Made by a program: the position numbers and the translations under genes
Notes under the pieces: model-generated
Told to the model about the DNA's origin: nothing
What the model saw: the letters and a program-made list of their open reading frames with translations, nothing else
The model's database searches: none
In this document: piece by piece, positions 560 to 32,558 of the stretch
Layout of the letters: each line of letters begins with the position of its first letter
Numbering within the stretch: position 1 is the first letter of the stretch
Assembly: GCA_012974305.1 (NCBI GenBank)
Contig: JAAXQN010000186.1
Coordinates: 1-32,599 of the forward strand
DNA: 32,599 nt
Reading direction: 5' to 3'
Origin: Candidatus Methylomirabilis sp.
Lineage (GTDB): Bacteria; Methylomirabilota; Methylomirabilia; Methylomirabilales; CSP1-5

Positions 560-772
560 ATGTCCCTACTCCACACCAAAGTCGCCCGGGAAGGCGCCGC
601 CTCAACAACAATTTTTTGCTTCACCGCAGTCACTACGGCGGTGCTGCTCTTCACAGGCGTCGCCCTCGCCCGCCATGCATACCTTGTCTGGGTAGAAGGG
701 CTCATCCAACGGATCGAGCCAAGGTATCGCGAGATGGCTATCTGGGAGTATCAGGGTGGTAGGTCCACGTGA
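560..772 (+). CDS. Small single-pass membrane protein, hypothetical
   Basis: A 70-residue product with one strong hydrophobic segment (about 15-37, TTIFCFTAVTTAVLLFTGVA) followed by a mixed-charge tail ending in GGRST. ATG 560 is taken as the start. A longer version from 494 would overlap the preceding gene by 38 bases and has an unlikely basic N-terminus. No clear Shine-Dalgarno is visible apart from a weak AGAGA. No family recognised. The same frame stays open past the TGA at 770-772 for another 61 codons, so this may be the 5' part of a decayed gene. Confidence 0.4.
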   Translation: MSLLHTKVAREGAASTTIFCFTAVTTAVLLFTGVALARHAYLVWVEGLIQRIEPRYREMAIWEYQGGRST

Positions 773-1178: not shown

Positions 1179-3398
1179 TTGCCGGGATCTGTGAAAACTT
1201 ATTTGCATAACTTCCGACCGTGGTTTTGGGCCTCAGGGGTCCTGGCCGTGCTCACCCTTGTGGGTACCCCTCCCATTGAGGCCGCGCAGAAGCTGACGAA
1301 TCAGCTCGCCGGTGCGTCTAGTCCATATCTCCAGGAGGCGGCAAGCCACCCGGTCGCCTGGTATTACTGGGGAGAAGAGGCCTTTCGACTGGCCAAGGAG
1401 CTGGATCGGCCGATTCTCATGGACATTGGAGCGATCTGGTGCCACTGGTGCCACGTGATGGACCATGAGACGTACAGCAATCCCGAGGTGGCGAAACTGA
1501 TAAACAACAATTTCATCGCCATCAGGGTAGACCGGGACGAGCGGCCTGATATTGATGCCCAATACCAGCAGGCGGTGCAGGCCATTACGGGCCACGGTGG
1601 CTGGCCGCTCACGGTCTTTATGACCCCCGAAGGGAAGGTCTTCTACGGCGGAGGAACCTTTTTCCCCGATGACCGGTTCGGGCGGCCGGGCTTCAAGAGG
1701 GTGCTCCCCAAGCTCGCCGAGCTCTATAGAGACCGCAGAGAGATGATCATGACATCTGCCGATAAGCTGTACAAGGCGCTGTCCACTCATGAAGCTGAGA
1801 GGCTCAGGAAGGCTCCCCTCTCCCCCCAGCTCGTCGAAGCCATTACCCAGTCAATGACCCGTTTCTTCGATGAGGAACACGGAGGCTTTGGGCCGGCGAT
1901 GAAGTTCCCCCACACCGGGTCAATCGCACTTGCCCTCAGGACATACGCGGAGAAGGGCGATGAGCAGATGCTCAGGATCGCCACCACAACCCTGGACGAG
2001 ATGGCCAAAGGAGGAATCCACGACCAACTCGGAGGAGGGTTTCACCGGTACGCCACTGACCGGGCCTGGCGTATTCCCCACTTTGAGAAGTTCACTACGG
2101 GGAACGCCCTGCTTCTCATGAACTATCTTCGTGCGTACCAGGCAACAGAGAACGCGCGCTACAGGGAGGTCGCCGAGGGGATCATTGTCTACACGAACGC
2201 GGTCCTGTCCGATCAAGAACGGGGAGGGTTCTACTCGGACCAGGATGCGGATATAGGTCCTGGGGACGATGGGGCCTACTATACCTGGACCATCCGGGAA
2301 GTGAAGGCGGCGTTGTCAAAGGAAGAGGCGGAGGTCCTCGTACGACATTACGCCATCGATGAGAAGGGAGACATGCGCGAGACCCCCGGACGAAACGTCC
2401 TTTGGGTGGCGACCACGCCTGAGCAGATCGCCCGGGACCTTTCCCTTCCTGTCCGTCAGGTCAAGGCCCTCATCGCGAGTGGGAACACCCACTTGATCGA
2501 GGCACGGACAAAGCGGAAGACACCCTTTGTGAACCAGACTCTGTTCGCCGACCGGAACGGCATGATGATCAGCGCCTACCTCGAGGCCTACAAGGTCCTG
2601 GGCCGGGAAGAGCTCAAGGTCTTTAGCTTGAAAAGCCTGGACTATCTCCTCACGCGCATCTACTCGCGGGAAGAGGGACTGTACCACGCCCTCTCTGACG
2701 GGAAACCCCACACCCCCGGCTTCCTCAGCGATTACGTGTGGATCACCGCAGCCCTCCTCCAGGCCTTCCAGGTCACGGGAGACGTCCGGTATCTCAAGAC
2801 GGCAAGAGAATTGATGGATCAGGCCCTTCGCACCTTTTGGGACGAGACCGGGAATGCCTTCTTCGATTTCCGCCCCGAATCGACGGCCCTGGGTCTCCTC
2901 AAGCGCCCCTCCAAATCCTTTACGGACACTCCCATTCCCTCGCCGAACGCCATGGCGGCCTTGGTCCTGAACGAACTGTATTTGCTGACAAACGCGAACA
3001 TGTATCACAAGCGGGCCGAGCAGATCCTGGAGACATTCGCTGTCGCTGCCCCCGACAATGGGATATTCGCTTCGACCTACGCCCTGGCAGTCGATCTTCA
3101 CCTACACCCTCCGGCCCATGTGGCCATCATTGGCCCCCGATCCGACCCCCGCACCCTGGCCTTGTGGCAGGCCGCCCTGAAAGCCTTTCGGCCGGGAAAG
3201 ATCGTGGCAGCCTATGATCCGGCCCTTGGGGAGGCAGCAAAGCTCCCCCCGCCGATCGCTGCGGCCATGCAAGCGACTCGCGCGAAAGGCACGCCACAGG
3301 CCTACGTCTGTGTGGGGATTTCCTGTTCGCTTCCCACGAGCGAGCCGGAAGCGGTCACAGTTCTGGTCCAAACTTTCGAGCGGCAGATTCCCCCCTGA
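1179..3398 (+). CDS. Exported DUF255/YyaL-like thioredoxin-domain protein
   Basis: A 739-residue member of the YyaL/SPATA20 family: an N-terminal thioredoxin-like domain (about 45-210) followed by an (alpha/alpha)6-barrel-type region resembling N-acylglucosamine epimerase or cellobiose epimerase. The CHWCHV motif gives Cys88 and Cys91, followed by the family's VDRDERPD and GGWPLTVF segments. Unlike the paralogue at 7639 it has a signal peptide or anchor at about 9-35, so it probably acts outside the cytoplasm. Several barrel signatures are changed: HFEKFTTGNA instead of [10 protein letters not shown], and FADRNGMMIS instead of [10 protein letters not shown]. The start is uncertain: TTG 1179, or GTG 1191, which leaves a good signal peptide; neither has an ideal ribosome site. 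The substrate of the family is not established. Confidence 0.9.
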   Translation: MPGSVKTYLHNFRPWFWASGVLAVLTLVGTPPIEAAQKLTNQLAGASSPYLQEAASHPVAWYYWGEEAFRLAKELDRPILMDIGAIWCHWCHVMDHETYSNPEVAKLINNNFIAIRVDRDERPDIDAQYQQAVQAITGHGGWPLTVFMTPEGKVFYGGGTFFPDDRFGRPGFKRVLPKLAELYRDRREMIMTSADKLYKALSTHEAERLRKAPLSPQLVEAITQSMTRFFDEEHGGFGPAMKFPHTGSIALALRTYAEKGDEQMLRIATTTLDEMAKGGIHDQLGGGFHRYATDRAWRIPHFEKFTTGNALLLMNYLRAYQATENARYREVAEGIIVYTNAVLSDQERGGFYSDQDADIGPGDDGAYYTWTIREVKAALSKEEAEVLVRHYAIDEKGDMRETPGRNVLWVATTPEQIARDLSLPVRQVKALIASGNTHLIEARTKRKTPFVNQTLFADRNGMMISAYLEAYKVLGREELKVFSLKSLDYLLTRIYSREEGLYHALSDGKPHTPGFLSDYVWITAALLQAFQVTGDVRYLKTARELMDQALRTFWDETGNAFFDFRPESTALGLLKRPSKSFTDTPIPSPNAMAALVLNELYLLTNANMYHKRAEQILETFAVAAPDNGIFASTYALAVDLHLHPPAHVAIIGPRSDPRTLALWQAALKAFRPGKIVAAYDPALGEAAKLPPPIAAAMQATRAKGTPQAYVCVGISCSLPTSEPEAVTVLVQTFERQIPP

Positions 3399-3410
3399 TC
3401 ACAGTCAAAA

Positions 3411-3431
3411 CCGGCTGAAGGACGGAGCCGG
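3411..3431 (+). other. Hairpin in the gap before the DUF2784 gene
   Basis: CCGGCT and AGCCGG form a perfect 6-bp stem with a 9-nt loop just after the DUF255 stop codon. No T-run follows, so it is not a standard terminator. It may stabilise the upstream message end or weakly affect the next gene. Confidence 0.35.
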
Positions 3432-3447
3432 ATGGGAGAACCAGAGA

Positions 3448-3819
3448 ATGCTCTATGGCGTTCTGGCCGACTTCGTGGTGATGGTGCACTTTGCCTTCGT
3501 CCTGTTCGTAGTACTCGGCGGATTCTTCGTCCTGAGGTGGAAGCGGTGTGCCTGGTTACACGTTCCGGTGGTTCTCTGGGGTGCACTCATTGAATTTACG
3601 GGTTGGATCTGTCCACTCACGCCGCTTGAGAACTGGCTCCGTGCACGAGGTGGGGCGGTCGGATATCGGTCCAGCTTTATAGAGCACTACATTTTTCCGG
3701 TCCTTTATCCCACACATCTCACGCGACAGTTGCAGATTACCCTGGGTCTCTTGGTATTGGGGATTAATCTCGGAATCTATGGATGGGTATTGCGCCGCGC
3801 CGCAAAGAGCAAGGCTTGA
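3448..3819 (+). CDS. DUF2784 family membrane protein
   Basis: A 123-residue integral membrane protein with three or four hydrophobic segments (about 3-28, 35-53 and 90-116). It matches the DUF2784 pattern: an N-terminal HFAFVLFVVLGG helix, then a conserved W-x-C-P-L-T-P-L-E-N-W-L-R loop, then an IEHY...P-x-LTR segment. Function unknown for the family. ATG 3448 was chosen because the domain starts there and GGGAGAACCAGAGA precedes it; the open frame extends upstream to 3214 only by overlapping the DUF255 gene. It lies 49 bases after that gene and is probably co-transcribed with it. Confidence 0.85.
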   Translation: MLYGVLADFVVMVHFAFVLFVVLGGFFVLRWKRCAWLHVPVVLWGALIEFTGWICPLTPLENWLRARGGAVGYRSSFIEHYIFPVLYPTHLTRQLQITLGLLVLGINLGIYGWVLRRAAKSKA

Positions 3820-3881
3820 TCAGGAGGGCGCCATCACACACTGCGAGGCAGATAACGTGTAGGCAACCTGGAGGAGGGATC

Positions 3882-4457
3882 ATGGCGATATCATCGACGA
3901 TGGAGTTACCCTTTGGGGCGAAAGCCCCGGATATTGCGCTTCCGAACATTGATGGAAAGATCACCTCGCTTGCCGATTTTGGCGATGCGCCTACCCTGCT
4001 GGTGATGTTCATTTGCAACCACTGCCCCTATGTCCTGCATCTCCGAGAGCATCTCGTCCAGCTGGTCAAAGAGTACCAGAGCAAGGGGGTGGCGGTCGTG
4101 GGGATCAACTCGAACGATGTCAAGCGGTATCCAGATGATGCCCCCGACAAAATGGCCGAGGCCGCCAAGCGGTGCGGCTTTACTTTCCCGTACCTCTTTG
4201 ATGAATCCCAGGAGGTGGCCAAAGCCTATCGGGCCGCGTGTACACCGGATTTCTTCCTTTTCGACAAGGATCGCAAGCTCATCTACCGGGGGCAATACGA
4301 CGACAGCCGTCCAAAGGGCGACATTCCAGTGACCGGAAAGGACCTTCGCGCAGCCTTGGATGCCGCCCTTGCGGATGGTCCCCTCCCCCAAGATCAAAAG
4401 CCCAGCGTGGGCTGCGGCATCAAGTGGAAGCCTGGCAACGAGCCGGACTTCGCCTAG
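3882..4457 (+). CDS. Thioredoxin-fold (redoxin/AhpC-TSA-like) family protein
   Basis: A 191-residue cytoplasmic protein with a thioredoxin fold of the peroxiredoxin-like type. Residues CNHCPY give a CxxC redox pair at Cys45 and Cys48, preceded by the LLVMFI strand. The later segments GINSND, FPYLFDESQEVAKAYRA, the cis-Pro strand TPDFFLFD and YRGQYDDSRP are typical of the family often labelled thioredoxin family protein. Its reaction is presumably thiol-disulfide exchange; the partner is unknown. A strong GGAGGAGGG ribosome site 5-8 nt before ATG 3882 sets the start. A second Cys appears near the end (VGCGIKWKPGNEPDF), also common in this group. It follows two likely co-transcribed genes, one of which also has a thioredoxin domain. 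Confidence 0.88.
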   Translation: MAISSTMELPFGAKAPDIALPNIDGKITSLADFGDAPTLLVMFICNHCPYVLHLREHLVQLVKEYQSKGVAVVGINSNDVKRYPDDAPDKMAEAAKRCGFTFPYLFDESQEVAKAYRAACTPDFFLFDKDRKLIYRGQYDDSRPKGDIPVTGKDLRAALDAALADGPLPQDQKPSVGCGIKWKPGNEPDFA

Positions 4458-7638: not shown

Positions 7639-10600
7639 ATGAGCCAAGAGGCTGCGCCGCGGCACACCAATAGGTTGATCCACGAGACCAGTCCCTATCT
7701 GTTGCAGCACGCCCATAATCCGGTCGACTGGTATGCCTGGGGGGAGGAGGCCCGCCAGCGCGCCAAGGGAGAACACCGTCCCATCCTCGTCAGTATCGGC
7801 TACTCCACATGCCACTGGTGCCATGTCATGGAACGCGAGTCGTTCGAGGACGAGGCCATCGCCGCGCTTATGAACAAGCATTTTGTCTGCATCAAGGTCG
7901 ATCGAGAGGAGCGGCCCGACCTCGACGAGATTTACATGGCAGCCACACTCGCGCTCAACCACGGGCAAGGGGGCTGGCCCATGACGGTCTTTCTGACCCC
8001 CGACCAGCAGCCTTTTTTCGCGGGAACCTACTTCCCCCCGACAGACAAATATGGTCGCCCCGGGTTCCCCACCCTGCTCCGACGGATTGCCGAAATTTGG
8101 GAAAACGACCCCGAGACAGTTCAGCAACAGGCTGCTGAGCTGACCGAACACCTCCGCCAGTCGTCACGCTCCCTCGCCTCTATGCCGGTCGGTGAGGCGG
8201 AAGTTGCCGCGGCCATCTCCTACTCTGCCGAGACCTTTGACGCCACCCACGGCGGATTTGGTGCCGCCCCCAAGTTCCCCGCCGCAACGAAACTCTCGCT
8301 CCTCCTGTGTCATCACCAGCGCACCGGGGACAACCATACCCTGCACATGGCCCTCAAGACACTTGACGCTATGGCCCAGGGAGGGATCTACGACCAGATC
8401 GGCGGCGGGTTTGCCCGCTACTCGACGGACGAGCATTGGCTCGTCCCGCATTTTGAAAAGATGCTCTACGATAACGCGCTCCTTACCCGGACCTACCTCG
8501 AGGCCTTCCAGGTCACCGGCGGTCCCTTGTACCAGCGCATTGCTACCGAAGTCCTGGACTACATTTTGCGCGAGATGACCGCTTCCGAGGGCGGCTTCTA
8601 CTCCGCCACCGACGCCGACTCCGAGGGGGAGGAGGGGAAATTCTTCGTCTGGACGCCCGATGAAATCGAAGCGGTCCTGGGCGAAGAGGAGGCGCGGCGC
8701 TTCTGCACCTATTACGACATCACGCCTCGGGGAAACTGGGAGGGAAAGAGCATTGCCAACGTCCGCCGCACGATTAATCAAGTCGCGGCCGGGCTCGATA
8801 TCGACCCCGAGGCGCTTCAGGCATCGCTCGATCAGGCACGGCCGATAATCTACGAGGCCCGGGGGCAGCGGATCCCACCCGGGCTCGACGACAAGATCCT
8901 CACCGCCTGGAACGGATTGATGATCAGCGCGATGGCCGAGGGATATCGCGTCCTCGGTGACCGGCGATATCTGGATGCCGGCACGCGTGCCGCCGATTTT
9001 TTGCTCACCACCCTCGTTCGAGCGGATGGCCGACTGCTCCGGACCTACCGGGCAGGCAAGGCGCACCTCGATGCCTACCTCGAGGACTATGCCTACCTCG
9101 CCGAGGGGCTGATCGACCTTTACGAGGCAGGCGGTGCATCCCGCTACCTCCTGGAATCGCTGCGCCTGGTCGAGATCGTTCTGGCCGACTTTCTCGACGA
9201 GGAGAGCGGGGCTTTCTACTCCACAGCGCGGGACCACGAATTTCTGATCGTGCGGCATCGGGAGGGAAACGATGGAGCCACCCCAGCCGGGAACGCCGTG
9301 GCCGCCTCTGCGCTCGCCCGCCTCTCGTTCCACCTGGACCGCGAAGACTTGCGAAACGCAGCGGAGCGCGCGATCACCGCCTACGGCAAACAGATCAGCC
9401 GCCTCCCCCATGCTTTTGCCAAGAGCCTGGCGGTCGTGGATCTGCTCCTGGATGGGCCGGTTGAGCTGGCCCTGATCGGGAGTAGCGGGGAGACCCGTCT
9501 TGAAGCGCTCCGCCGTGAAGTCGGCCGCCGCTACTTCCCCAACAGGATCATCGCCCACTACGATCCGGCCTCGGGCCATGCTCCCTCTTTCCCCCTGCTC
9601 GAAGGGAAGGGTCTTGTCAATGGACAGGCAGCGCTCTATGTATGCCGGAACTTCGCCTGCCAGGCCCCCATCACCGATCCGGCGCTGGTTGCCCCGGCCC
9701 TGAGCGCTCCCATGTCGGACGCGGAACCCACAAGACGGTCGGTCGTCGGCACCTTCCTGGCAGGCAGCGCCACCCCCGGCGATACCGCCGCCTACGCCGC
9801 TCGGTTCCCCGCCCACGGCTATGTTTCCCTGGGCACGACCGGCCTTATCACCAGCAAGGTCGGGTTCGGCGGCTACCGCGTTGACGATGAGACTCCCAGG
9901 CACCGCGAGGCGCTCGAAAAGGCCCTCCTCGGCGGCTGCAACCTCATCGATACGTCTACCAACTACATGGATGGCGGGAGTGAACGTTGCGTCGGTATCG
10001 TGCTCGGCGCGCTGGTACGGTCCGAGAAGCTGCGTCGTGAGGAACTCATCGTGGTCTCGAAGATCGGCTACGTGCAGGGGACTAACCTAGTCCTGGCCCA
10101 GGAACGGGAGACAGCCAGCCAAGCCTTTCCAGAGATGATTAAATACATGGATGGTTGCTGGCACTGTATCCATCCCGAGTTCCTCGGCGAGCAGCTCGAG
10201 CGTTCGCTCGCACGCCTCCAGCTCGACACCCTGGATGTCTGCCTGCTCCACAATCCCGAATACTTTTTCTCGGACGCCAAGAAGCGAGGCCGCGGGTCTC
10301 TGGAGGACCTCCGAGCAGAGTTCTACCGGCGACTCCGGGATGCCTTTGCGTTCTTCGAAAGCCAGGTCTCAGCGGGCACGATTCAATGGTACGGTGTCTC
10401 TTCGAACACAGCGGTCTCACCCGCCTCAGACCCGGAGGCGACCTCGCTCAGCCGCATGCTGGCCGCGGCGCGAGAAGCCGGAGGCCCCGGCCACCATTTT
10501 CGGGTCCTTCAGCTACCGATGAACCTGTTCGAGGGGGGCGGTGTCCTGGAGCGGAACACTGGACCGGATAACCAGCAAACAGTCCTTGAAGCTGCCGTCG

Positions 10601-11283
10601 AGGCAGGGGTGGATGTCCTGGTGAACCGGCCGCTCAATGCCATTGTCGGCGACCGCATGCTGCGCCTGGCTAGCTTTGATGTAAAGGCTGAGCCAATCGA
10701 TATCGATGCCCAGCTCAAGGTCGTGGCCGATCTGGAGGCAGAGTGGCGTCAGCGGCTCGCTCCGAATATCCAGACATCGCCCAAGAGTCTCGCCCCGGAC
10801 CATTTCTTCCGCTGGGCCGATCAACTGCAGAGCCTTTCGGGCCAGCTCGAGAGCCTCGAACACTGGGAGCATATCGAGGGACAGATGATCATGCCGCAGC
10901 TCACGCAGTTGCTCGCGACCCTTGATAATAATCTCACGGGTGAGCTACAGTCGGTGTGGCAGTCCTGGCGCGCCCGCTATCTGGAGGAACTGGCAAAGCC
11001 ATTAGCCGAATTTCGGCGCCAGGGGGCCAACAAGAGCCAGCGACAGAGCGCAGCAATCTCGGCAGTGATCGATCCGTTGCTCCCGGCCGAGCGACGGGCC
11101 GAGAGTCTCTCGCGCAAGGCCCTCTGGGTGCTGACCAGCACGCCCGGCGTTAGCTGCGTGCTGAACGGTATGCGGAGACCTGCCTACGTTGAAGATTCCC
11201 TCGGTATCCTTGCCTGGTCACCGCTCGCCGAGGTCGTCCCGATCTACCATGCCATCCAAACCCTCAGACTACCCCATCGGTAG
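7639..11283 (+). CDS. Fusion of YyaL/DUF255 thioredoxin-domain protein and aldo/keto reductase
   Basis: A single open frame of 1214 residues. Residues 1 to about 680 are a complete canonical YyaL/SPATA20-type protein: a thioredoxin-like domain with Cys58 and Cys61 (CHWCHV), then the barrel with [22 protein letters not shown] and [12 protein letters not shown], ending in the usual CRNFACQ...TDP segment. From about 727 to the end lies an aldo/keto reductase: [14 protein letters not shown], Asp771 and Tyr776 (IDTSTNY), Lys808 (VSKIG), His871 (LLHNPE), so the catalytic tetrad is intact. A helical insertion of about 150 residues (roughly 1000-1150) precedes the last AKR segment ([15 protein letters not shown]). 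No signal peptide, so cytoplasmic. AAGGAG lies 7 nt before ATG 7639. Its 3' end overlaps the convergent PIG-L gene by 20 bases. The reaction is unknown; the fusion suggests an oxidoreductase acting on the product or substrate of the barrel. Confidence 0.92.
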
Positions 11284-14071: not shown

Positions 14072-16018
<1,947 letters not shown>

Positions 16019-21069: not shown

Positions 21070-22146
21070 TTATCCCAGGATCTCGTATCGTGTATTCCGG
21101 ACGCGGGGGACATACCCGGCGTCCCTGATCACCCGTTCGATCTCCTCCCGAGAGGCCATGAATTTTGCCCCACCGGCGGAGACCACCCGCTCCTCGAAGA
21201 TCGTGCTCCCCAGGTCGCTGATCCCGTAGTGGAGCGCGATCTGGGCCACCTTGGGCCCCTGGGTCAGCCAAGAAGCCTGGATATTGTCAAAGTTATCCAG
21301 CATCAGCCGAGCCACCGCCATGGTCCGGAGGTAGTCAAACGCCGAAGCCCTCTTCCCGTTCAGTGCGGTCCCCTCGGGCTGGAAGTTCCAGGCCACGAAG
21401 GCGGTAAACCCGCGTGTCTCGTCTTGCAGGGACCGGAGCCGGAGGAAATGCTCCATCCGCTGCTCCGCCGTCTCGACCGACCCGAACATCATCGTGGCGC
21501 TCGACGGAATCCCGACCTGATGGGCCGTCAGCATGCAGTCGAGCCATTCCTGCACCGTGTCCTTCAAAGGGGAAATGACCTGCCGTACCTCTTCCACCAG
21601 GATCTCTGCCCCCCCTCCGGGGATCGACCCAAGGCCGGCCGCTTTCAATCGCAGGAGGGTCTCCCTCATTGAAAGGTTAGAGATCTTGGCCAGGTAGATC
21701 AGCTCGGCCGGTGAGAGGCCGTGGATGTCGACCGGAAAACGCTCCTTGATAGCCCGAAAAGTGTCCTCATAGTAGTCGATCTTGAGCGCCGGGTTCAAGC
21801 CTCCCTGAAAGAGAACCTCGGTGCCGCCGTGATCGACGAGTTCCTGGATCTTCTCGAAGATCTCCTCACGGGAGAGGACGTAGCCCTCGTGGTGACCGGG
21901 CAGGCGGTAAAAGGCGCAGAACGAGCACTTCACCCAGCAGACGTTGGTGTAGTTGACGATCCGGCCAATGACATAGGTTACCTCCCGTTCCGGACGCTTC
22001 CGTCGCCGCACCGTATCGGCCAGGAAGGCTAAAGCCGGGAGGTTGGTTACCTCAAAAAGGGTCAGGCCGTCCTCGGTCGTGAGCCGCTCTCCAGCCAGGA
22101 CCTTCGTCTCAACCTCTTTGAATCGTTCTGCCCCGTTTCCCGACAT
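21070..22146 (-). CDS. mqnC: Cyclic dehypoxanthinyl futalosine synthase
   Basis: A 358-residue radical SAM enzyme of the futalosine route to menaquinone; it cyclises dehypoxanthinyl futalosine. The cluster motif CxxxCxxC is Cys70, Cys74 and Cys77 in NVCWVKCSFC. The motifs SIPGGGAEI, MMFGSVET, WNFQPEGT and NIQASWLTQG match MqnC rather than MqnE. It acts in the cytoplasm, after removal of hypoxanthine. It follows mqnE by 44 bases. The remaining pathway genes (mqnA, mqnB, mqnD) are not in this window. The ATG at 22146 is preceded by a weak AGGAAAT. Confidence 0.95.
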   Translation of the reverse strand: MSGNGAERFKEVETKVLAGERLTTEDGLTLFEVTNLPALAFLADTVRRRKRPEREVTYVIGRIVNYTNVCWVKCSFCAFYRLPGHHEGYVLSREEIFEKIQELVDHGGTEVLFQGGLNPALKIDYYEDTFRAIKERFPVDIHGLSPAELIYLAKISNLSMRETLLRLKAAGLGSIPGGGAEILVEEVRQVISPLKDTVQEWLDCMLTAHQVGIPSSATMMFGSVETAEQRMEHFLRLRSLQDETRGFTAFVAWNFQPEGTALNGKRASAFDYLRTMAVARLMLDNFDNIQASWLTQGPKVAQIALHYGISDLGSTIFEERVVSAGGAKFMASREEIERVIRDAGYVPRVRNTRYEILG

Positions 22147-22190
22147 GCAATTTCCTCGCCCGGACCCCTCAGCACTCCGCTGAAGGCTGC

Positions 22191-23306
22191 CTACGCGGCT
22201 ACCATCACGTTATAGAGTGCATCGCGCTCCACTGGCACCCGTCCCGCTTCGTTGACCAGATGGAGGAGCTCCTGATGGTTCAAAACCTGGTGATCGGACG
22301 TGGTTCCCAGGGCATGGGTAATCTCGTAGTGATTCACCGTCCCGTCGAGGTCATCCGCCCCGTACCAGAGGGCCAGCTGGGCAACCTGGGGCGTGATCAT
22401 GATCCAGAAGGCCTTGATGTGAGGAAAATTATCCAGGAGCAGACGAGCGATCGCAATTTCCCGGAGATTCTGTTGCCCCGTGGTCAGCGGGATATGCTCG
22501 AGCTCGGTCCGGGCGGGGTCGAAGGCCAAGGGGACAAAGCATTGAAACCCTTTGGTCTCATCTTGCAGCTCCCGGATGTGGAGGAGATGCTTGACCTTTT
22601 CCTCCACCGTCTCAATATGACCGTAAAGCAAGGTTGCGTTCGACTTGAGCCCCGCGCGGTGGACCTCCCGGGACACCTCAAACCACCCTTCGTTATCTAG
22701 TTTGGCTCGGAAGAGCTCCTCATGGACCCGCTCGCTGAAGACCTCAGCTCCGCCTCCCGGACAGCAGGTCAGTCCCGCATCCTTGAGATCTTCGAGGACG
22801 TCCGCCAGAGGTTTTTTCGCAACTCGGGCGATCTGGGCCAGCTCAATCATCGTAAAGGCCTTGATCTGGGCATCAGGACGGGCCGTCCGGACCGCCGTCA
22901 GAATATCCAGGTAATATTCATACGGAAGCTTGGGGTTGATTCCCGCCACCATGTGGATCTCCCGGATCGCCTGATGGCGGTACTCATCCAAACGGGCGAT
23001 GATATTGTCCGCAGTCAGCACGTAGCCCCTGGGGTCTCCTGGCTTGGCGTAAAAGGAGCAAAATTTGCAGAGCTTATTACAAATGTTGGTGTAATTGATA
23101 TGGAGGTTCCGGACATAGTAAGTGGCACAGCCGTTCATGCGTTCCCGGACGTGGTTAGCCAAGGCTCCCACGGCGGTGAGGTCTAGTGTCTGATAGAGCC
23201 GCAGGCCATCCTCGTAGGAAAGGCGCTCCCCTTTCAGGATCTTCCCGTACAGGTCCGTCAGGCCAGCCCGAGCAACCAGTACTTCCACCTCGACCTCGCG
23301 ATTCAT
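22191..23306 (-). CDS. mqnE: Aminofutalosine synthase
   Basis: A 371-residue radical SAM enzyme that joins S-adenosylmethionine and the enolpyruvyl-benzoate intermediate to form aminofutalosine, the first radical step of the futalosine menaquinone pathway. Cys76, Cys80 and Cys83 (NICNKLCKFC) bind the cluster. CPGGGAEVFSERVH, LLYGHIET and the ADDLDGTVNHYEITHALG segment match MqnE. The start ATG 23306 lies inside an iterated 7-nt repeat (TGAACGG, TGAATCA, TGAATCG), so no normal ribosome site precedes it. The upstream yjbQ stop is 50 bases away, and the pair probably shares one transcript. Confidence 0.95.
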   Translation of the reverse strand: MNREVEVEVLVARAGLTDLYGKILKGERLSYEDGLRLYQTLDLTAVGALANHVRERMNGCATYYVRNLHINYTNICNKLCKFCSFYAKPGDPRGYVLTADNIIARLDEYRHQAIREIHMVAGINPKLPYEYYLDILTAVRTARPDAQIKAFTMIELAQIARVAKKPLADVLEDLKDAGLTCCPGGGAEVFSERVHEELFRAKLDNEGWFEVSREVHRAGLKSNATLLYGHIETVEEKVKHLLHIRELQDETKGFQCFVPLAFDPARTELEHIPLTTGQQNLREIAIARLLLDNFPHIKAFWIMITPQVAQLALWYGADDLDGTVNHYEITHALGTTSDHQVLNHQELLHLVNEAGRVPVERDALYNVMVAA

Positions 23307-28648: not shown

Positions 28649-30043
28649 TCACATGTGGATGACACGGCCCAGCGCGGCCAAACACGCCTCCGCCACTGTC
28701 TCCGAGAGAGTCGGATGGGCATGGACCGAGTTGTGCAGGTCTTCGAGAGTCGCCTCGAGTGTGCGGGCCATCGTCGCCTCGGCGATCATCTCCGTCGCCT
28801 CCGGACCGATAATATGAAGTCCCAGGATCTCTCCATACTCCGCATCCGCCACGACCTTGACAAATCCCTCGGTGTCTCCCAGCGCCACCGCCTTCCCGCT
28901 AGCCTGGAAAGAAAAGCGACCTACTTTGACCTGCCGGCCCATCTCCTTGGCCTGCTCCTCGGTCAGACCGACGCTGGCTACCTGGGGAGAGCAGTAAGTG
29001 CAATTCGGGATCTTTGAGGGATCCGGCCGTTTGGTTTTTATCCCAGCCATTGTCTCCACTGCGGCAATCCCCTCGGCCATCGCTTTGTGGGCGAGCAGGG
29101 GGCCACCGACCACATCGCCGATTGCATAGATTCCTGGAACCGAGGTTTCACATTGGTCGCTGACCTCAATGAATCCACCGCGGTCTCGCTTCACCCCCAA
29201 CCCATCAAGTCCCAACGATTCGACATTGGGTACGCGGCCGACCGCGACCAACGCAACATCTCCAGCAACCTCTTTCTGTTTTCCCTCTCTCGACAGCTGA
29301 AGGTGGACCTGCTCTCCCTTGACCGCTACTCCCTCCACCGTGGTATTGGTCCAAATCTTCATCCCACGCTTCGCGAAAATCTTCTCCAGGAGGCTGGATA
29401 CCTCGGCGTCCTCTACCGGTACCAGGCGAGGCAACATCTCGATGACTGTCACCTCGGAGCCATAGGTTCCATAGATGTCGGCAAACTCCACCCCGACTGC
29501 CCCCGCGCCAATGATCAGGAGCGATCGTGGAACCTGAGGCAGGCTCACGGCCTCGGTGCTCGTGATCACCCGCTTTCCATCCACAGCAACCCCGGGGATC
29601 TCTCGAGGGCGGGACCCGGTGGCCAGCAGGACTCGTTCTGCCTGTAGCTCGGTCTCTTTGCCATCTTTGGTGACCAGGATCTGACCTTTGCCAGCGAGCC
29701 TCGCCTCTCCGAGCACCACTGTCACCTTGTTCTTCTTCATGAGATACTCGACACCCTTGGAAAGCTTCCAGGCTGCCCGCTCGCTTCGCTTTACCGCGAC
29801 CGAGAAGTCCACCCGCAGATTGTCAAAGCTGAAGCCGAACTCTTCGGCTCGGCGAAGCAAGGAGAGTATCTCGGCGTTCCGGAGGAGTGCCTTCGTGGGA
29901 ATACAACCCCAGTTGAGACAGACCCCTCCCAACCTGTCGCGCTCCACGATGGTAACCTTCTTCCCCAACTGGGCAGCCCGGATGGCACCAACATAGCCAC
30001 CGGGGCCGCTCCCGATTACCACGAGGTCATACCGCTCCCCCAT
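28649..30043 (-). CDS. lpdA: Dihydrolipoyl dehydrogenase (E3)
   Basis: A 464-residue flavoprotein that reoxidises dihydrolipoamide on E2 with NAD+. Visible motifs are the FAD-binding GSGPGGYVGAIRAAQLG (11-27), the redox pair Cys42 and Cys47 in GGVCLNWGCIPT, the NAD-binding GAGAVGVEFADIYGTYG, the second FAD motif YAIGDV, and the catalytic His-Glu region HAHPTLSE near the C-terminus. ATG 30043 follows AAGGGG; the frame is open to 30166 but this would overlap pdhC. It starts 49 bases after pdhC and clearly belongs to the same complex. Confidence 0.97.
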   Translation of the reverse strand: MGERYDLVVIGSGPGGYVGAIRAAQLGKKVTIVERDRLGGVCLNWGCIPTKALLRNAEILSLLRRAEEFGFSFDNLRVDFSVAVKRSERAAWKLSKGVEYLMKKNKVTVVLGEARLAGKGQILVTKDGKETELQAERVLLATGSRPREIPGVAVDGKRVITSTEAVSLPQVPRSLLIIGAGAVGVEFADIYGTYGSEVTVIEMLPRLVPVEDAEVSSLLEKIFAKRGMKIWTNTTVEGVAVKGEQVHLQLSREGKQKEVAGDVALVAVGRVPNVESLGLDGLGVKRDRGGFIEVSDQCETSVPGIYAIGDVVGGPLLAHKAMAEGIAAVETMAGIKTKRPDPSKIPNCTYCSPQVASVGLTEEQAKEMGRQVKVGRFSFQASGKAVALGDTEGFVKVVADAEYGEILGLHIIGPEATEMIAEATMARTLEATLEDLHNSVHAHPTLSETVAEACLAALGRVIHM

Positions 30044-30092
30044 GACGTCCCCTTTCATGCAAGCGGACCAGACACCCGCTAGAAGGATGATT

Positions 30093-31331
30093 TCAAGTGA
30101 CCAGATGGAGGGGTTGCTCGAGATAGACCTTGAAGCGCTGGAGGAATCGTGCAGCCGTCGCTCCATCGAGGACGCGGTGGTCCGCGGAGAGGGTCACCCG
30201 CATCCGCTCGGCCACCTTCACCTCGCCATCCACCACGACCGGTCGAGGGATGACCGAGCCCACGGCCAGAATAGCCGCCTCGGGCGGATTAATGATGGCG
30301 ACAAACTCCTCCACGTCGAACATGCCCAGATTGCTGATGGTGAAGGTGCCAGGGCTGAAGTGCTCCGGCCGCAGCCGCCCCGTCCGGGCCCGCTCCACCA
30401 ATTCCTTCGCCTCCTGGGCGATCTGGCTGAGGGGTTTTTTGTCGCAATCGGGGATGACCGGTGTCACCAACCCCTGCTCCAACGCGACGGCAACACCGAT
30501 ATTGATACGCCCGTAGACCCGGAGTTTTCCCTCGGCAAAGGAGGCGTTCACCTCCGGAAAGTCCTGAAGAGTCTTGGCCACCCCCTTCACCAGCATGTCG
30601 GTGACCGAGATGCGCGCCCCTTCCCCGAGGAGTGCGTTCAAGCCCTTCCGAAGCTTCAAGGCCTCGGCCATGTCAATATCCGAAGTAACATAGAAGTGAG
30701 GAGCAACGCGTTTGCTTTCGGCCATCCGGCGGGCCACGGTCTGCCGGATGCGGGAAAGGTCGTGATCCTCGTACGGAATGTCCTGAGGTACAGCGGCCGG
30801 TGCAGCCGCCACAGGGGTCGGAGCTGGCCTCGGAGCCTCCACAGGCCGTTCCGCAAGAAAAGTCTCGACGTCGTCTTTGACGATCCGGCCACCCGGTCCG
30901 GTCCCGCGGATCAGGTTGAGGTGTACTCCTTGCTCGCGCGCAATGCGTCGGGCAACGGGTGACGCGGCAATCCGGGAAGCCTCTTCTCCTGTGACAGCGA
31001 CGGTGGCCACCGGTGTCGGCGCCCCTGTGGCCACCGGAGCCGCCTTCTCCGCGGGAGCGGCCTTTACCTCCAGCCCCGGGATCGGCTCGTCCCGGTCCGC
31101 GATGACGGCGATGACGTGCCCGACTGGGACCGTTTGTCCCTCAGGGACCAGGATCTTTCGCAGGACACCAGCGGTGTAGGCCTCCACCTCCACCGTCACC
31201 TTGGTGGTGTCGACTTCGGCGATAACCTCCCCGCGCGTGACCTCATCCCCCTCGTCCTTCCGCCAACGGACGATGGTCCCCTCGGTCATGTCGTAGCCCA
31301 TTTTGGGCATCACGACTTCGTTTACCAACAC
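30093..31331 (-). CDS. pdhC: Dihydrolipoamide acetyltransferase (E2) of pyruvate dehydrogenase
   Basis: A 412-residue 2-oxoacid dehydrogenase E2. It has one lipoyl domain (1-80) with the lipoylated Lys44 in DTTKVTVEV, an Ala/Pro-rich linker (90-112), a peripheral subunit-binding domain (about 120-158, SPVARRIAREQGV...GTGPGGRI), a second Ala/Pro linker, and the catalytic core (190-412) with His385 and Asp389 in SADHRVLDG. The start is uncertain: GTG 31331, TTG 31328 or GTG 31313; a run of G residues lies directly upstream. The gap to pdhB (240 bases) is filled mainly by a MITE-like element. Confidence 0.95.
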   Translation of the reverse strand: MLVNEVVMPKMGYDMTEGTIVRWRKDEGDEVTRGEVIAEVDTTKVTVEVEAYTAGVLRKILVPEGQTVPVGHVIAVIADRDEPIPGLEVKAAPAEKAAPVATGAPTPVATVAVTGEEASRIAASPVARRIAREQGVHLNLIRGTGPGGRIVKDDVETFLAERPVEAPRPAPTPVAAAPAAVPQDIPYEDHDLSRIRQTVARRMAESKRVAPHFYVTSDIDMAEALKLRKGLNALLGEGARISVTDMLVKGVAKTLQDFPEVNASFAEGKLRVYGRINIGVAVALEQGLVTPVIPDCDKKPLSQIAQEAKELVERARTGRLRPEHFSPGTFTISNLGMFDVEEFVAIINPPEAAILAVGSVIPRPVVVDGEVKVAERMRVTLSADHRVLDGATAARFLQRFKVYLEQPLHLVT

Positions 31332-31378
31332 TCCCCCCGTTTTCCCCCTGAGCTTACCGGAGTCGGAAAACCTGTTAT

Positions 31379-31575
31379 CTAGCCCGCATTATTCACGAAC
31401 GGAATGTCTTCGTGAATAATGCGCCTGCAGGTGCGGGCTCCGCCGCACCGGCAGGTTTCGATCCCGCCGCTGCGGCGGGCCTCAAGGCTAGCCCTGAGCG
31501 ACGCCCCGCAAACGCGGGGCGGAGTCGAAGCCCGGAGGGTGGTTTATTCACTTCTATGTGAATAATCCGGGCTAG
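31379..31575. mobile_element. MITE-like palindromic element between pdhB and pdhC
   Basis: About 197 bp bounded by 18-bp inverted ends with one mismatch: CTAGCCCGCATTATTCAC (31379-31396) and the complement of 31558-31575 (CTAGCCCGGATTATTCAC). Inside are perfect hairpins: a 14-bp stem (31386-31399 with 31409-31422), a two-part stem (31424-31455), CCCGCCGC/GCGGCGGG (31463-31479), GCCCCGC/GCGGGGC (31503-31520) and TTATTCAC/GTGAATAA (31544-31565). The CTAG at each tip could be a 4-bp target duplication. It has no open frame. The pdhB stop codon (31574-31572) is part of its right end. Confidence 0.75.
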
Positions 31576-32558
31576 ACGCCGGTCCGGACAAAGAGCTGCT
31601 TGACCGCCTCCACTACCCGCCCAGCATCCGGGATCGCCGCCTGTTCCAAATTCTTGGCGTAAGGCAACGGGACCTCCACACCGGCCACGCGACCGATTGG
31701 TGCATCCAGGTAGTCAAAGGCCTCCTCTTGAATCCGACTCGCAACCTCTGCACCAATCCCGTAGGTGCGCCAGGCCTCCTCGACGGTGACGGCTCGGTTG
31801 GTCTTCCTGACGGAGGTCAGCACCGTCTCCATGTCGAGCGGGCGCAGCGTCTTGAGGTCGACCACCTCGGCTTCGATCCCCTCCTGACTGAGGCGATCCG
31901 CCGCCTCGAGTGCCACCAACGCCATCCTGGAGTAAGCCACGAGGGTGACATCTTTCCCCTCTCGCTTCACCTCGGCCTTGCCCAGGGGAATGAGAACCTC
32001 CCCTTCCGGGACCTCTCCCCGAACTCGATAGAGGAGGGCGTGCTCGATGAAGAGGACCGGATCGTTATCCCGAATAGCGCTCTTCAACAGTCCCTTGGCA
32101 TCGGCAGGCGTCGCCGGGGTAACTACCTTCAGACCCGGAACATGGGCAAACAGGACCTCAAGGCTCTGCGAATGGGTCGAGGCGAGCTGGGCACCCCCAC
32201 CCCCCGTCATCCGAAACACGACGGGGACCGACATCTGCCCCCCAAACATGTGCAGGACCTTCGCGGCATGATTGATGATCGCATCAGAGGCGAGAAGCGC
32301 AAAATTAATCGTCATCAGCTCGGCCACAGGACGAAGCCCCCCCATGGCTGCTCCAACCGCGGCGCCGCTAATCCCCCCTTCGGCGATTGGGGTATCCATC
32401 ACTCGCTTTTCCCCGAAATCGTTGACAAGGCCTGAGGTGACCCCATAGGCCCCACCATACGCCACCACGTCCTCGCCAAAGACCAGGACGCGCTCGTCCC
32501 TGGCCATCTCCTCGCGCAGGGCGTGATTCAGCGCTTCCCGATAGGTGATTGTCGGCAT
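31572..32558 (-). CDS. pdhB: Pyruvate dehydrogenase E1 beta subunit
   Basis: A 328-residue E1 beta (transketolase-like pyrimidine-binding domain about 4-180, C-terminal domain about 200-320). Landmarks: GEDVVAYGGAYGVTSGL, DTPIAE with the cofactor-activating Glu60, the ASTHSQSLEVLFAHVPGLKVVTPATPADAKGLL segment, and the C-terminal VDLKTLRPLDMETV and VEEAW. With E1 alpha it decarboxylates pyruvate using thiamine diphosphate and loads acetyl onto lipoyl-E2. ATG 32558 has GGGGAGGA about 9 nt upstream. Its stop codon TAG is the tip of the MITE-like element, so the last residues could have been altered by insertion. Confidence 0.96.
   Translation of the reverse strand: MPTITYREALNHALREEMARDERVLVFGEDVVAYGGAYGVTSGLVNDFGEKRVMDTPIAEGGISGAAVGAAMGGLRPVAELMTINFALLASDAIINHAAKVLHMFGGQMSVPVVFRMTGGGGAQLASTHSQSLEVLFAHVPGLKVVTPATPADAKGLLKSAIRDNDPVLFIEHALLYRVRGEVPEGEVLIPLGKAEVKREGKDVTLVAYSRMALVALEAADRLSQEGIEAEVVDLKTLRPLDMETVLTSVRKTNRAVTVEEAWRTYGIGAEVASRIQEEAFDYLDAPIGRVAGVEVPLPYAKNLEQAAIPDAGRVVEAVKQLFVRTGV

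What the first reader, a model, noticed from the sequence alone, without database searches (positions are those of the whole stretch)
7639..11283. One open frame fuses a complete YyaL/DUF255 protein to an aldo/keto reductase
Seen: a 1214-residue frame with the full YyaL/SPATA20 signature set (Cys58/Cys61, [19 protein letters not shown]) followed by an aldo/keto reductase with intact Asp771, Tyr776, Lys808 and His871 and a helical insertion of about 150 residues. Known: YyaL proteins have a thioredoxin-like domain plus a sugar-epimerase-type barrel and no settled function. Inference: the fused NAD(P)H-dependent reductase may act on the aldehyde or sugar-like compound handled by the barrel, so the fusion could reveal the function of DUF255.
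Basis: partly seen in the sequence, partly recalled or inferred. Interest (0 to 1): 0.72.

Follow-up and report, generated by a model that had tools for sequence, protein, structure and literature searches.

The report
DUF255 protein fused to aldo/keto reductase
A bacterial gene welds two complete enzyme-like proteins, one of a family with no settled function and one carbonyl reductase, into a single chain; the same joined gene is found in several groups of bacteria, so it is a real and old fusion that gives a handle on what the unknown half does.

Summary
ORF 7639-11283 (+) is one uninterrupted 1214-aa frame: complete DUF255/YyaL (residues ~1-688), short linker, complete aldo/keto reductase (AKR, ~704-1214) with a helical insertion. 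It is no assembly join: of the 80 best genome-wide relatives, 74 carry DUF255 (whole or part) and AKR in one open frame, in records titled as five phyla. CxxC and the AKR tetrad are invariant in 46 of 46 fused proteins aligned; both halves are under purifying selection and diverge together. Trees fit one old fusion of an Acidobacteria-like standalone AKR with a DUF255, with moderate support on the AKR side.

The function is less certain. The AKR half was apparently lost several times while DUF255 stayed, and Acidobacteriota mostly keep this AKR apart from DUF255: the halves are facultative partners. Best reading: a cytosolic bifunctional enzyme whose AKR acts on a sugar-like carbonyl compound related to the barrel's ligand. 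Fold kin support this only generically; gene neighbours name no substrate. The fusion does not reveal DUF255's function, but makes it testable.

The parts
7639..11283 (+). fused gene: DUF255/YyaL + aldo/keto reductase, 1214 aa
   Evidence: orthologous single frames
7666..8154 (+). DUF255 thioredoxin-like domain (residues 10-172)
   Evidence: Pfam PF03190 257.4 bits; 3ira and 7tkv matches
7810..7821 (+). CxxC motif, Cys58-His-Trp-Cys61
   Evidence: invariant in 16 of 16 and 46 of 46
8179..9702 (+). DUF255 alpha/alpha-barrel part (residues ~181-688)
   Evidence: whole DUF255 half (model 1-653) aligned to 7tkv at Z 41.8 over 608 residues; barrel to 1vd5 Z 27.0 and 5x32 Z 26.9
9703..9747 (+). junction/linker (residues ~689-703)
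   Evidence: model residues 685-690 (window 694-699) have pLDDT under 50; standalone AKRs begin with the matching GxATxxGTxxY stretch just after it (by eye)
9748..11280 (+). aldo/keto reductase half (residues ~704-1214)
   Evidence: PF00248 63.3 bits; model vs AKR crystal structures Z 26-30
9949..9951 (+). AKR catalytic Asp771
   Evidence: invariant, (role recalled from the AKR family)
9964..9966 (+). AKR catalytic Tyr776
   Evidence: invariant, (role recalled)
10060..10062 (+). AKR catalytic Lys808
   Evidence: invariant, (role recalled)
10249..10251 (+). AKR catalytic His871
   Evidence: invariant, (role recalled)
10672..11025 (+). helical insertion in the AKR barrel (residues 1012-1129 by alignment), absent in 7 of 16 fused proteins of the order
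   Evidence: alignment; helices in the model; present in acidobacterial standalone AKRs L103/L104 (sequences printed)
1179..3398 (+). second DUF255 gene (739 aa), unfused paralogue with a hydrophobic N-terminus, 36% identical

Best explanation
A genuine bifunctional protein made, most likely, by one old gene fusion: a DUF255/YyaL protein (thioredoxin-like domain plus sugar-epimerase-type barrel) joined head-to-tail to an NAD(P)H-dependent aldo/keto reductase that carries its own helical insertion. Shown: one frame, both folds (by model), both sets of active-site residues conserved, co-divergence, survival of either half without the other. Inferred: it has no evident signal peptide (by eye) and works in the cytosol; the barrel binds or opens a small sugar-like or carbonyl compound and the AKR half reduces (or, like L-galactose dehydrogenase, oxidises) that compound or its product. 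The AKR is a facultative partner: where it is lost the DUF255 half goes on alone, and where the AKR is a separate gene it works alone.
For: One open frame with both Pfam families above cut-off. 74 of the 80 best relatives have DUF255 (whole or part) and AKR in one frame; 20 of 35 genomes of the order, window included (four cut by contig ends, one with an in-frame stop), 54 of 198 Nitrospirota genomes, 4 of 12 Myxococcota genomes picked for long DUF255 frames. C58, C61, D771, Y776, K808, H871 invariant in 46 of 46, the window plus 45 chosen of the 80 loci. Pairwise distances of the two halves correlate at r = 0.851, 0 of 2000 permutations reach it; dN/dS 0.12-0.19 (DUF255) and 0.15-0.28 (AKR) in four pairs. 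Model pLDDT 86.2, pTM 0.81. Barrel fold kin: D-mannose isomerase, unsaturated glucuronyl hydrolase; AKR fold kin: L-galactose dehydrogenases, AKR11, YghZ. The window's paralogue P0002 matches GlcNAc 2-epimerase PF07221 at 32.1 bits, cut-off 23.4.
Against: AKR half missing from DUF255 genes of G011, G014 and G030 with flanks colinear, and no such AKR at E <= 1e-20 elsewhere in those genomes (G030 only 80% complete); three Nitrospirota genomes have the fused-clade DUF255 without an AKR downstream. Acidobacteriota carry this AKR mostly as a gene of its own. No neighbour names a substrate. The fused protein itself has no sugar-epimerase family match above cut-off (C5-epim_C 20.5 bits vs 23.3). AKR fold matches are to many subfamilies within about 3 Z units, so no specificity follows. 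A fifth close pair gave AKR dN/dS 0.69 on almost no changes. pTM is only indirect evidence of domain packing; no PAE was available.
Confidence: 0.4

Rival explanations
1. The fusion only ties together two housekeeping redox or repair proteins for co-expression; the halves act on unrelated substrates.
For: Apparent repeated AKR loss with DUF255 kept; standalone AKR in varied contexts in Acidobacteriota, such as beside UbiE methyltransferase, FMN reductase, 2-thiouracil desulfurase-family or CofD genes; no neighbours shared across phyla in the 80 loci.
Against: The fusion has been kept in several phyla with both halves constrained, longer than plain co-expression would seem to need; high pTM suggests a fixed arrangement.
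Confidence: 0.38
2. The thioredoxin-like domain regulates or reactivates the AKR (or supplies thiols to a thiol-bound substrate) and the barrel is only a scaffold.
For: CxxC invariant in 46 of 46; the AKR half has an invariant Cys843 in a CWHC/IWHC loop.
Against: The second Cys of that AKR loop (Cys840) is not kept across phyla (consensus IWHC); barrel residues such as those of HFEKMLYDN are just as invariant.
Confidence: 0.12
3. The protein handles nitrosative stress: a thioredoxin-like denitrosylase fused to an AKR acting as an S-nitrosothiol reductase (such an activity of mammalian AKR1A1 is recalled, not from a call).
For: Frequent in Nitrospira and in Methylomirabilales, which handle nitrite and NO (record titles; physiology recalled).
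Against: Also in Myxococcota, Gemmatimonadota and Acidobacteriota; no residue or neighbour evidence; confounded by descent.
Confidence: 0.05
4. Assembly error or frameshift joins two neighbouring genes.
For: None found.
Against: Same join in dozens of independent assemblies, including a single-contig genome of 2,752,854 bases (G026).
Confidence: 0.01

Closest known systems
DUF255/YyaL/SPATA20 family (Pfam PF03190 Thioredox_DsbH), solved full-length structure 7tkv
   Same: whole thioredoxin-like plus barrel architecture; Z 41.8, 36% identity over 608 residues; CxxC kept
   Different: 7tkv chain is 668 residues and matches only residues 5-585 of the fused protein by sequence; here an AKR is fused at the C-terminus
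Aldo/keto reductase superfamily (PF00248): nearest folds 7utf (deoxynivalenol-detoxifying AKR), 1ynp (AKR11C1), L-galactose dehydrogenases 9w7a/9w6y/7svq, YghZ 3n6q
   Same: (beta/alpha)8 fold, Asp/Tyr/Lys/His tetrad; Z 28-30
   Different: only 20-23% identity in those rows; ~118-aa helical insertion; fused to DUF255
Acidobacterial AKR with the same insertion (L103, L104, L171-L185)
   Same: 40-64% identical best segments over the AKR half; insertion seen in L103/L104
   Different: no DUF255 in the stretch read in 17 of 17 loci; standalone in 16, L184 undecided because its start is cut by the contig end
Leptospirillum YyaL (TFP11), PMC7084401
   Same: a cytoplasmic YyaL in a member of Nitrospirota (phylum recalled), gene near trxB (passages read)
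   Different: about 79 kDa, so unfused; role stated there as unclear

Membership tests
DUF255/YyaL (PF03190) | Pfam profile above curated cut-off | tested here: met
   257.4 bits vs 27
DUF255/YyaL (PF03190) | CxxC in the thioredoxin-like domain | tested here: met
   C58/C61, 46 of 46 fused proteins
DUF255/YyaL (PF03190) | thioredoxin domain followed by an alpha/alpha barrel | tested here: met
   model vs 7tkv Z 41.8, rmsd 3.1 over 608 residues
Aldo/keto reductase superfamily (PF00248) | Pfam profile above curated cut-off | tested here: met
   63.3 bits vs 24
Aldo/keto reductase superfamily (PF00248) | (beta/alpha)8 barrel | tested here: met
   Z 26-30 against many AKR structures over 265-313 residues
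Aldo/keto reductase superfamily (PF00248) | Asp-Tyr-Lys-His catalytic tetrad | tested here: met
   D771, Y776, K808, H871 invariant
Aldo/keto reductase superfamily (PF00248) | NAD(P)H-dependent activity | not testable with these tools
   needs assay
NADH-dependent methylglyoxal reductase YdjG (NF049922) | equivalog score cut-off | tested here: not met
   26.4 bits vs 550
L-galactose dehydrogenase | close sequence relationship and activity | tested here: inconclusive
   sequence E 1e-4 to 7ezi, fold Z 27-29 at 20-23% identity, tied with other AKRs
Disulfide reductase DsbH (NF043050) | equivalog score cut-off | tested here: not met
   not listed at E <= 0.001 for the fused protein; paralogue 29.4 vs 190

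The most novel reading that the evidence does not exclude
The fused protein is a channelling two-step enzyme: the DUF255 barrel ring-opens or isomerises a sugar or sugar-like adduct (with the CxxC dealing with a thiol- or disulfide-linked moiety) and hands the open carbonyl directly to the AKR. If so, all DUF255 proteins, human SPATA20 included, are carbonyl/sugar-processing enzymes rather than general thiol reductases.
Probability: 0.18. Interest if true: 0.8.

Novelty: new variant of a known kind. Interest (0 to 1): 0.48.

Why it matters
DUF255/YyaL/SPATA20 occurs in bacteria and archaea (controls) and in human (recalled), yet a 2020 paper calls the role of a bacterial member unclear (PMC7084401, passages). 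A conserved fusion to an enzyme of well-understood chemistry gives a ready assay: NAD(P)H consumption can be screened on sugar and carbonyl panels. Natural variants (AKR lost, AKR free, insertion lost) form a built-in comparative experiment. The claim is modest: the fusion narrows the chemistry, it does not name the substrate.

Tried and rejected
Assembly or frameshift artefact: rejected.

Operon context as a clue: in Nitrospirota loci the fused gene often sits among OmpA-family, Ppx/GppA, thymidylate kinase-like, DnaJ, RNase D-like (exonuclease plus HRDC) and malic-enzyme-like genes; these clusters did not recur in the loci of other phyla within the 6 kb read on each side, and the window's own neighbours differ. 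No substrate follows.

SelO as the functional alternative to DUF255: PMC6822775 lists PF02696/PF03190 among negative phyletic couplings (passage read). SelO was found in 0 of 60 relatives, and among 14 control genomes SelO rings in 4 and DUF255 in 7 with no overlap. But in 140 Myxococcota genomes both occur in 39, SelO alone in 26, strong DUF255 alone in 58, neither in 17 (odds ratio 0.44, p = 0.029, not corrected for descent; 33 genomes with only weak PF03190 matches and 10 with none counted as lacking DUF255). They often coexist, so I dropped it as an explanation.

First AKR tree put acidobacterial standalone AKRs L103/L104 inside the fused clade (fission); with 17 acidobacterial AKRs most fall outside it, leaving one weakly placed group (L174-L177, support 80) inside. 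I therefore prefer standalone as ancestral and do not claim a fission.

One loss for the three unfused genes of G011, G014, G030: the AU test on the DUF255 half rejects one clade (p = 0.00033; the group was named after the first tree was seen). The breakpoints lie close together and the halves of some pairs differ in dS, so recombination after one loss is not excluded.

Literature: searches for DUF255 + thioredoxin, YyaL, SPATA20 + thioredoxin, DUF255 (26), COG1331 (27), 7TKV, DUF255 + aldo-keto, Thioredox_DsbH, Methylomirabilis + keto reductase, SPATA20's full name + bacteria + epimerase listed no description of this fusion in titles or abstract starts; of the papers listed I read passages of five only. 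Subscription papers and domain-architecture databases were not searched.

Full report
What is there. The frame at 7639-11283 (+) is a single uninterrupted 1214-aa ORF. Pfam finds DUF255 (PF03190) at residues 10-172 and aldo/keto reductase (PF00248) at 741-925, both above cut-off. A sequence search of solved structures finds 7tkv (full-length DUF255 protein) and 3ira for the first half, and only weak AKR matches for the second.

Whose genome. The window is contig C59 of a 2.82-Mb, 282-contig genome. The genus mate G002 has a 56,438-base contig that equals in length the record LDXR01000018.1, 'candidate division NC10 bacterium CSP1-5' (L067), and other order mates correspond in the same way to records titled Methylomirabilota; so the window comes from Methylomirabilales (inference from contig lengths and titles; the order name is recalled).

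Not an artefact. In 99 relatives, 20 of the 35 genomes of the same order (window included) show both halves in one place; G006, G016, G029 and G033 are cut by contig ends and G032 has one in-frame stop. A genome-wide scan kept the best 80 of 208 relatives. Of these 80: 58 have a complete uninterrupted fused frame; 14 have an uninterrupted junction but a cut or broken start or end; L082 and L141 are fused frames whose alignment overruns the stop; L063 and L142 have both halves in place with a frame broken inside a half; L090 and L134 are cut by the contig edge; L103 and L104 are standalone AKRs. Nitrospirota: 54 of 198 genomes with a complete fused frame. Myxococcota: of 12 genomes picked for long DUF255 frames, 4 are fused. 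Acidobacteriota: 18 of 297 genomes hold this AKR; G105 is fused, 16 are standalone in the stretch read, and G659 is undecided because its AKR start is cut by the contig end. Gemmatimonadota group: 5 of 200, four with fused-length frames and G922 with the end of a DUF255 in frame with the AKR.

Both halves look functional. C58, C61, D771, Y776, K808 and H871 are invariant in 16 of 16 proteins of the order and in 46 of 46 across phyla, i.e. the window plus 45 chosen of the 80 loci. dN/dS is 0.12-0.19 for the DUF255 half and 0.15-0.28 for the AKR half in four pairs; a fifth pair (L012/L013) has almost no changes and gives 0.19 and 0.69. The two halves' pairwise distances correlate (r = 0.851; 0 of 2000 permutations; 37 proteins), the AKR evolving about 1.35 times faster.

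History. On a tree of 70 chosen DUF255 halves all 37 fused ones fall in one clade (SH-aLRT 100) that also holds six unfused genes; six changes are needed, which fits one gain and five losses. In G011, G014 and G030 the DUF255 gene and the downstream DNA are colinear with G026, with about 1.2 kb of AKR missing; no other AKR of this kind was found in these genomes at E <= 1e-20 (G030 is 80% complete). The AU test rejects the three as one clade (p = 0.00033; group named after a first tree). On the AKR side, standalone AKRs of the same class (Rokubacteriales by recall; 32-43% identity, no insertion in the sequences printed) are the outgroup; acidobacterial AKRs, with the insertion where inspected (L103, L104), lie next, and the fused AKRs form a clade with moderate support in which one standalone group nests weakly. 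So the insertion-bearing AKR most likely existed first as a separate gene, then joined a DUF255. The insertion was later removed (118 residues by alignment) in the G026 subclade.

Structure. The model of residues 10-1209 built on 46 fused sequences has mean pLDDT 86.2 and pTM 0.81; only short stretches, among them the linker, are under 50. The DUF255 half aligns to 7tkv (Z 41.8, 608 residues); the barrel also to unsaturated glucuronyl hydrolase 1vd5 (Z 27.0) and D-mannose isomerase 5x32 (Z 26.9); the AKR half to 7utf, AKR11C1, L-galactose dehydrogenases, YghZ and others at Z 26-30. A pTM this high for a two-part protein suggests a preferred relative placement, but without PAE this is inference.

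How it most likely works. The chemistry of the AKR half (hydride transfer between NAD(P)H and a carbonyl) follows from fold and tetrad. The barrel belongs by fold with enzymes that act on sugars or uronates, although the fused protein has no sugar-epimerase family match above cut-off by sequence (the paralogue has). The simplest joint reading is that the AKR reduces or oxidises a sugar-like carbonyl compound that the barrel binds or makes, with the CxxC in a redox or thiol-linked role. This is inference: no substrate, no operon and no literature (searches in Tried and rejected) decides it, and the apparent repeated loss of the AKR half says that DUF255 does its own job without it. I put this at 0.4 and plain tethering at 0.38.

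Known or new. Both families are known. In the open-access library searched I found no paper on the fusion; the databases that list domain architectures were not searched. I file it as a new variant of a known kind.

Noticed in passing
window 1179-4457 (+): A second, unfused DUF255 gene with a hydrophobic, signal-like N-terminus (by eye) stands beside a DUF2784 gene and an AhpC/TSA-type thioredoxin-fold gene: perhaps an exported DUF255 with its own redox partner. G006 has both DUF255 genes on one contig too.
   Followed up: partly
L052 (G009:C279) around 1501-2055: A 258-aa frame joins the first ~45 residues of the DUF255 half to two pieces of the AKR half: a collapsed remnant of the fused gene, or misassembly.
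   Followed up: no
window 7639-11283 vs L004; L012 vs L015: Synonymous divergence differs between the halves of the same gene (0.11 vs 0.39; 0.36 vs 0.19), which hints at recombination near the junction.
   Followed up: no
L146, L147, L149 (G011, G014, G030): In-place absence of the AKR half at nearly the same breakpoints, with the DUF255 reading frame kept.
   Followed up: partly
L174-L177 (acidobacterial standalone AKRs): The standalone AKR directly follows, with a small overlap, a gene of one cluster whose L177 member is a UbiE-family methyltransferase; L188's follows a 2-thiouracil desulfurase-family gene, L172's has an FMN reductase gene downstream.
   Followed up: partly
window 21070-23306 (-): Two neighbouring radical SAM genes with the CofH/MqnC C-terminal region, as in futalosine-type menaquinone or F420 synthesis (pathway recalled).
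   Followed up: no
window 14072-15943 (-) and 28649-32558 (-): ThiC, and a dihydrolipoyl dehydrogenase-like, 2-oxoacid acyltransferase and transketolase-type (E1 beta-like) gene set: ordinary metabolism.
   Followed up: no
L123: Record titled 'uncultured Nitrosospira sp. isolate NOB2' shares neighbour-gene clusters with Nitrospira loci such as L124, L127 and L140; the title may be a mislabel.
   Followed up: no
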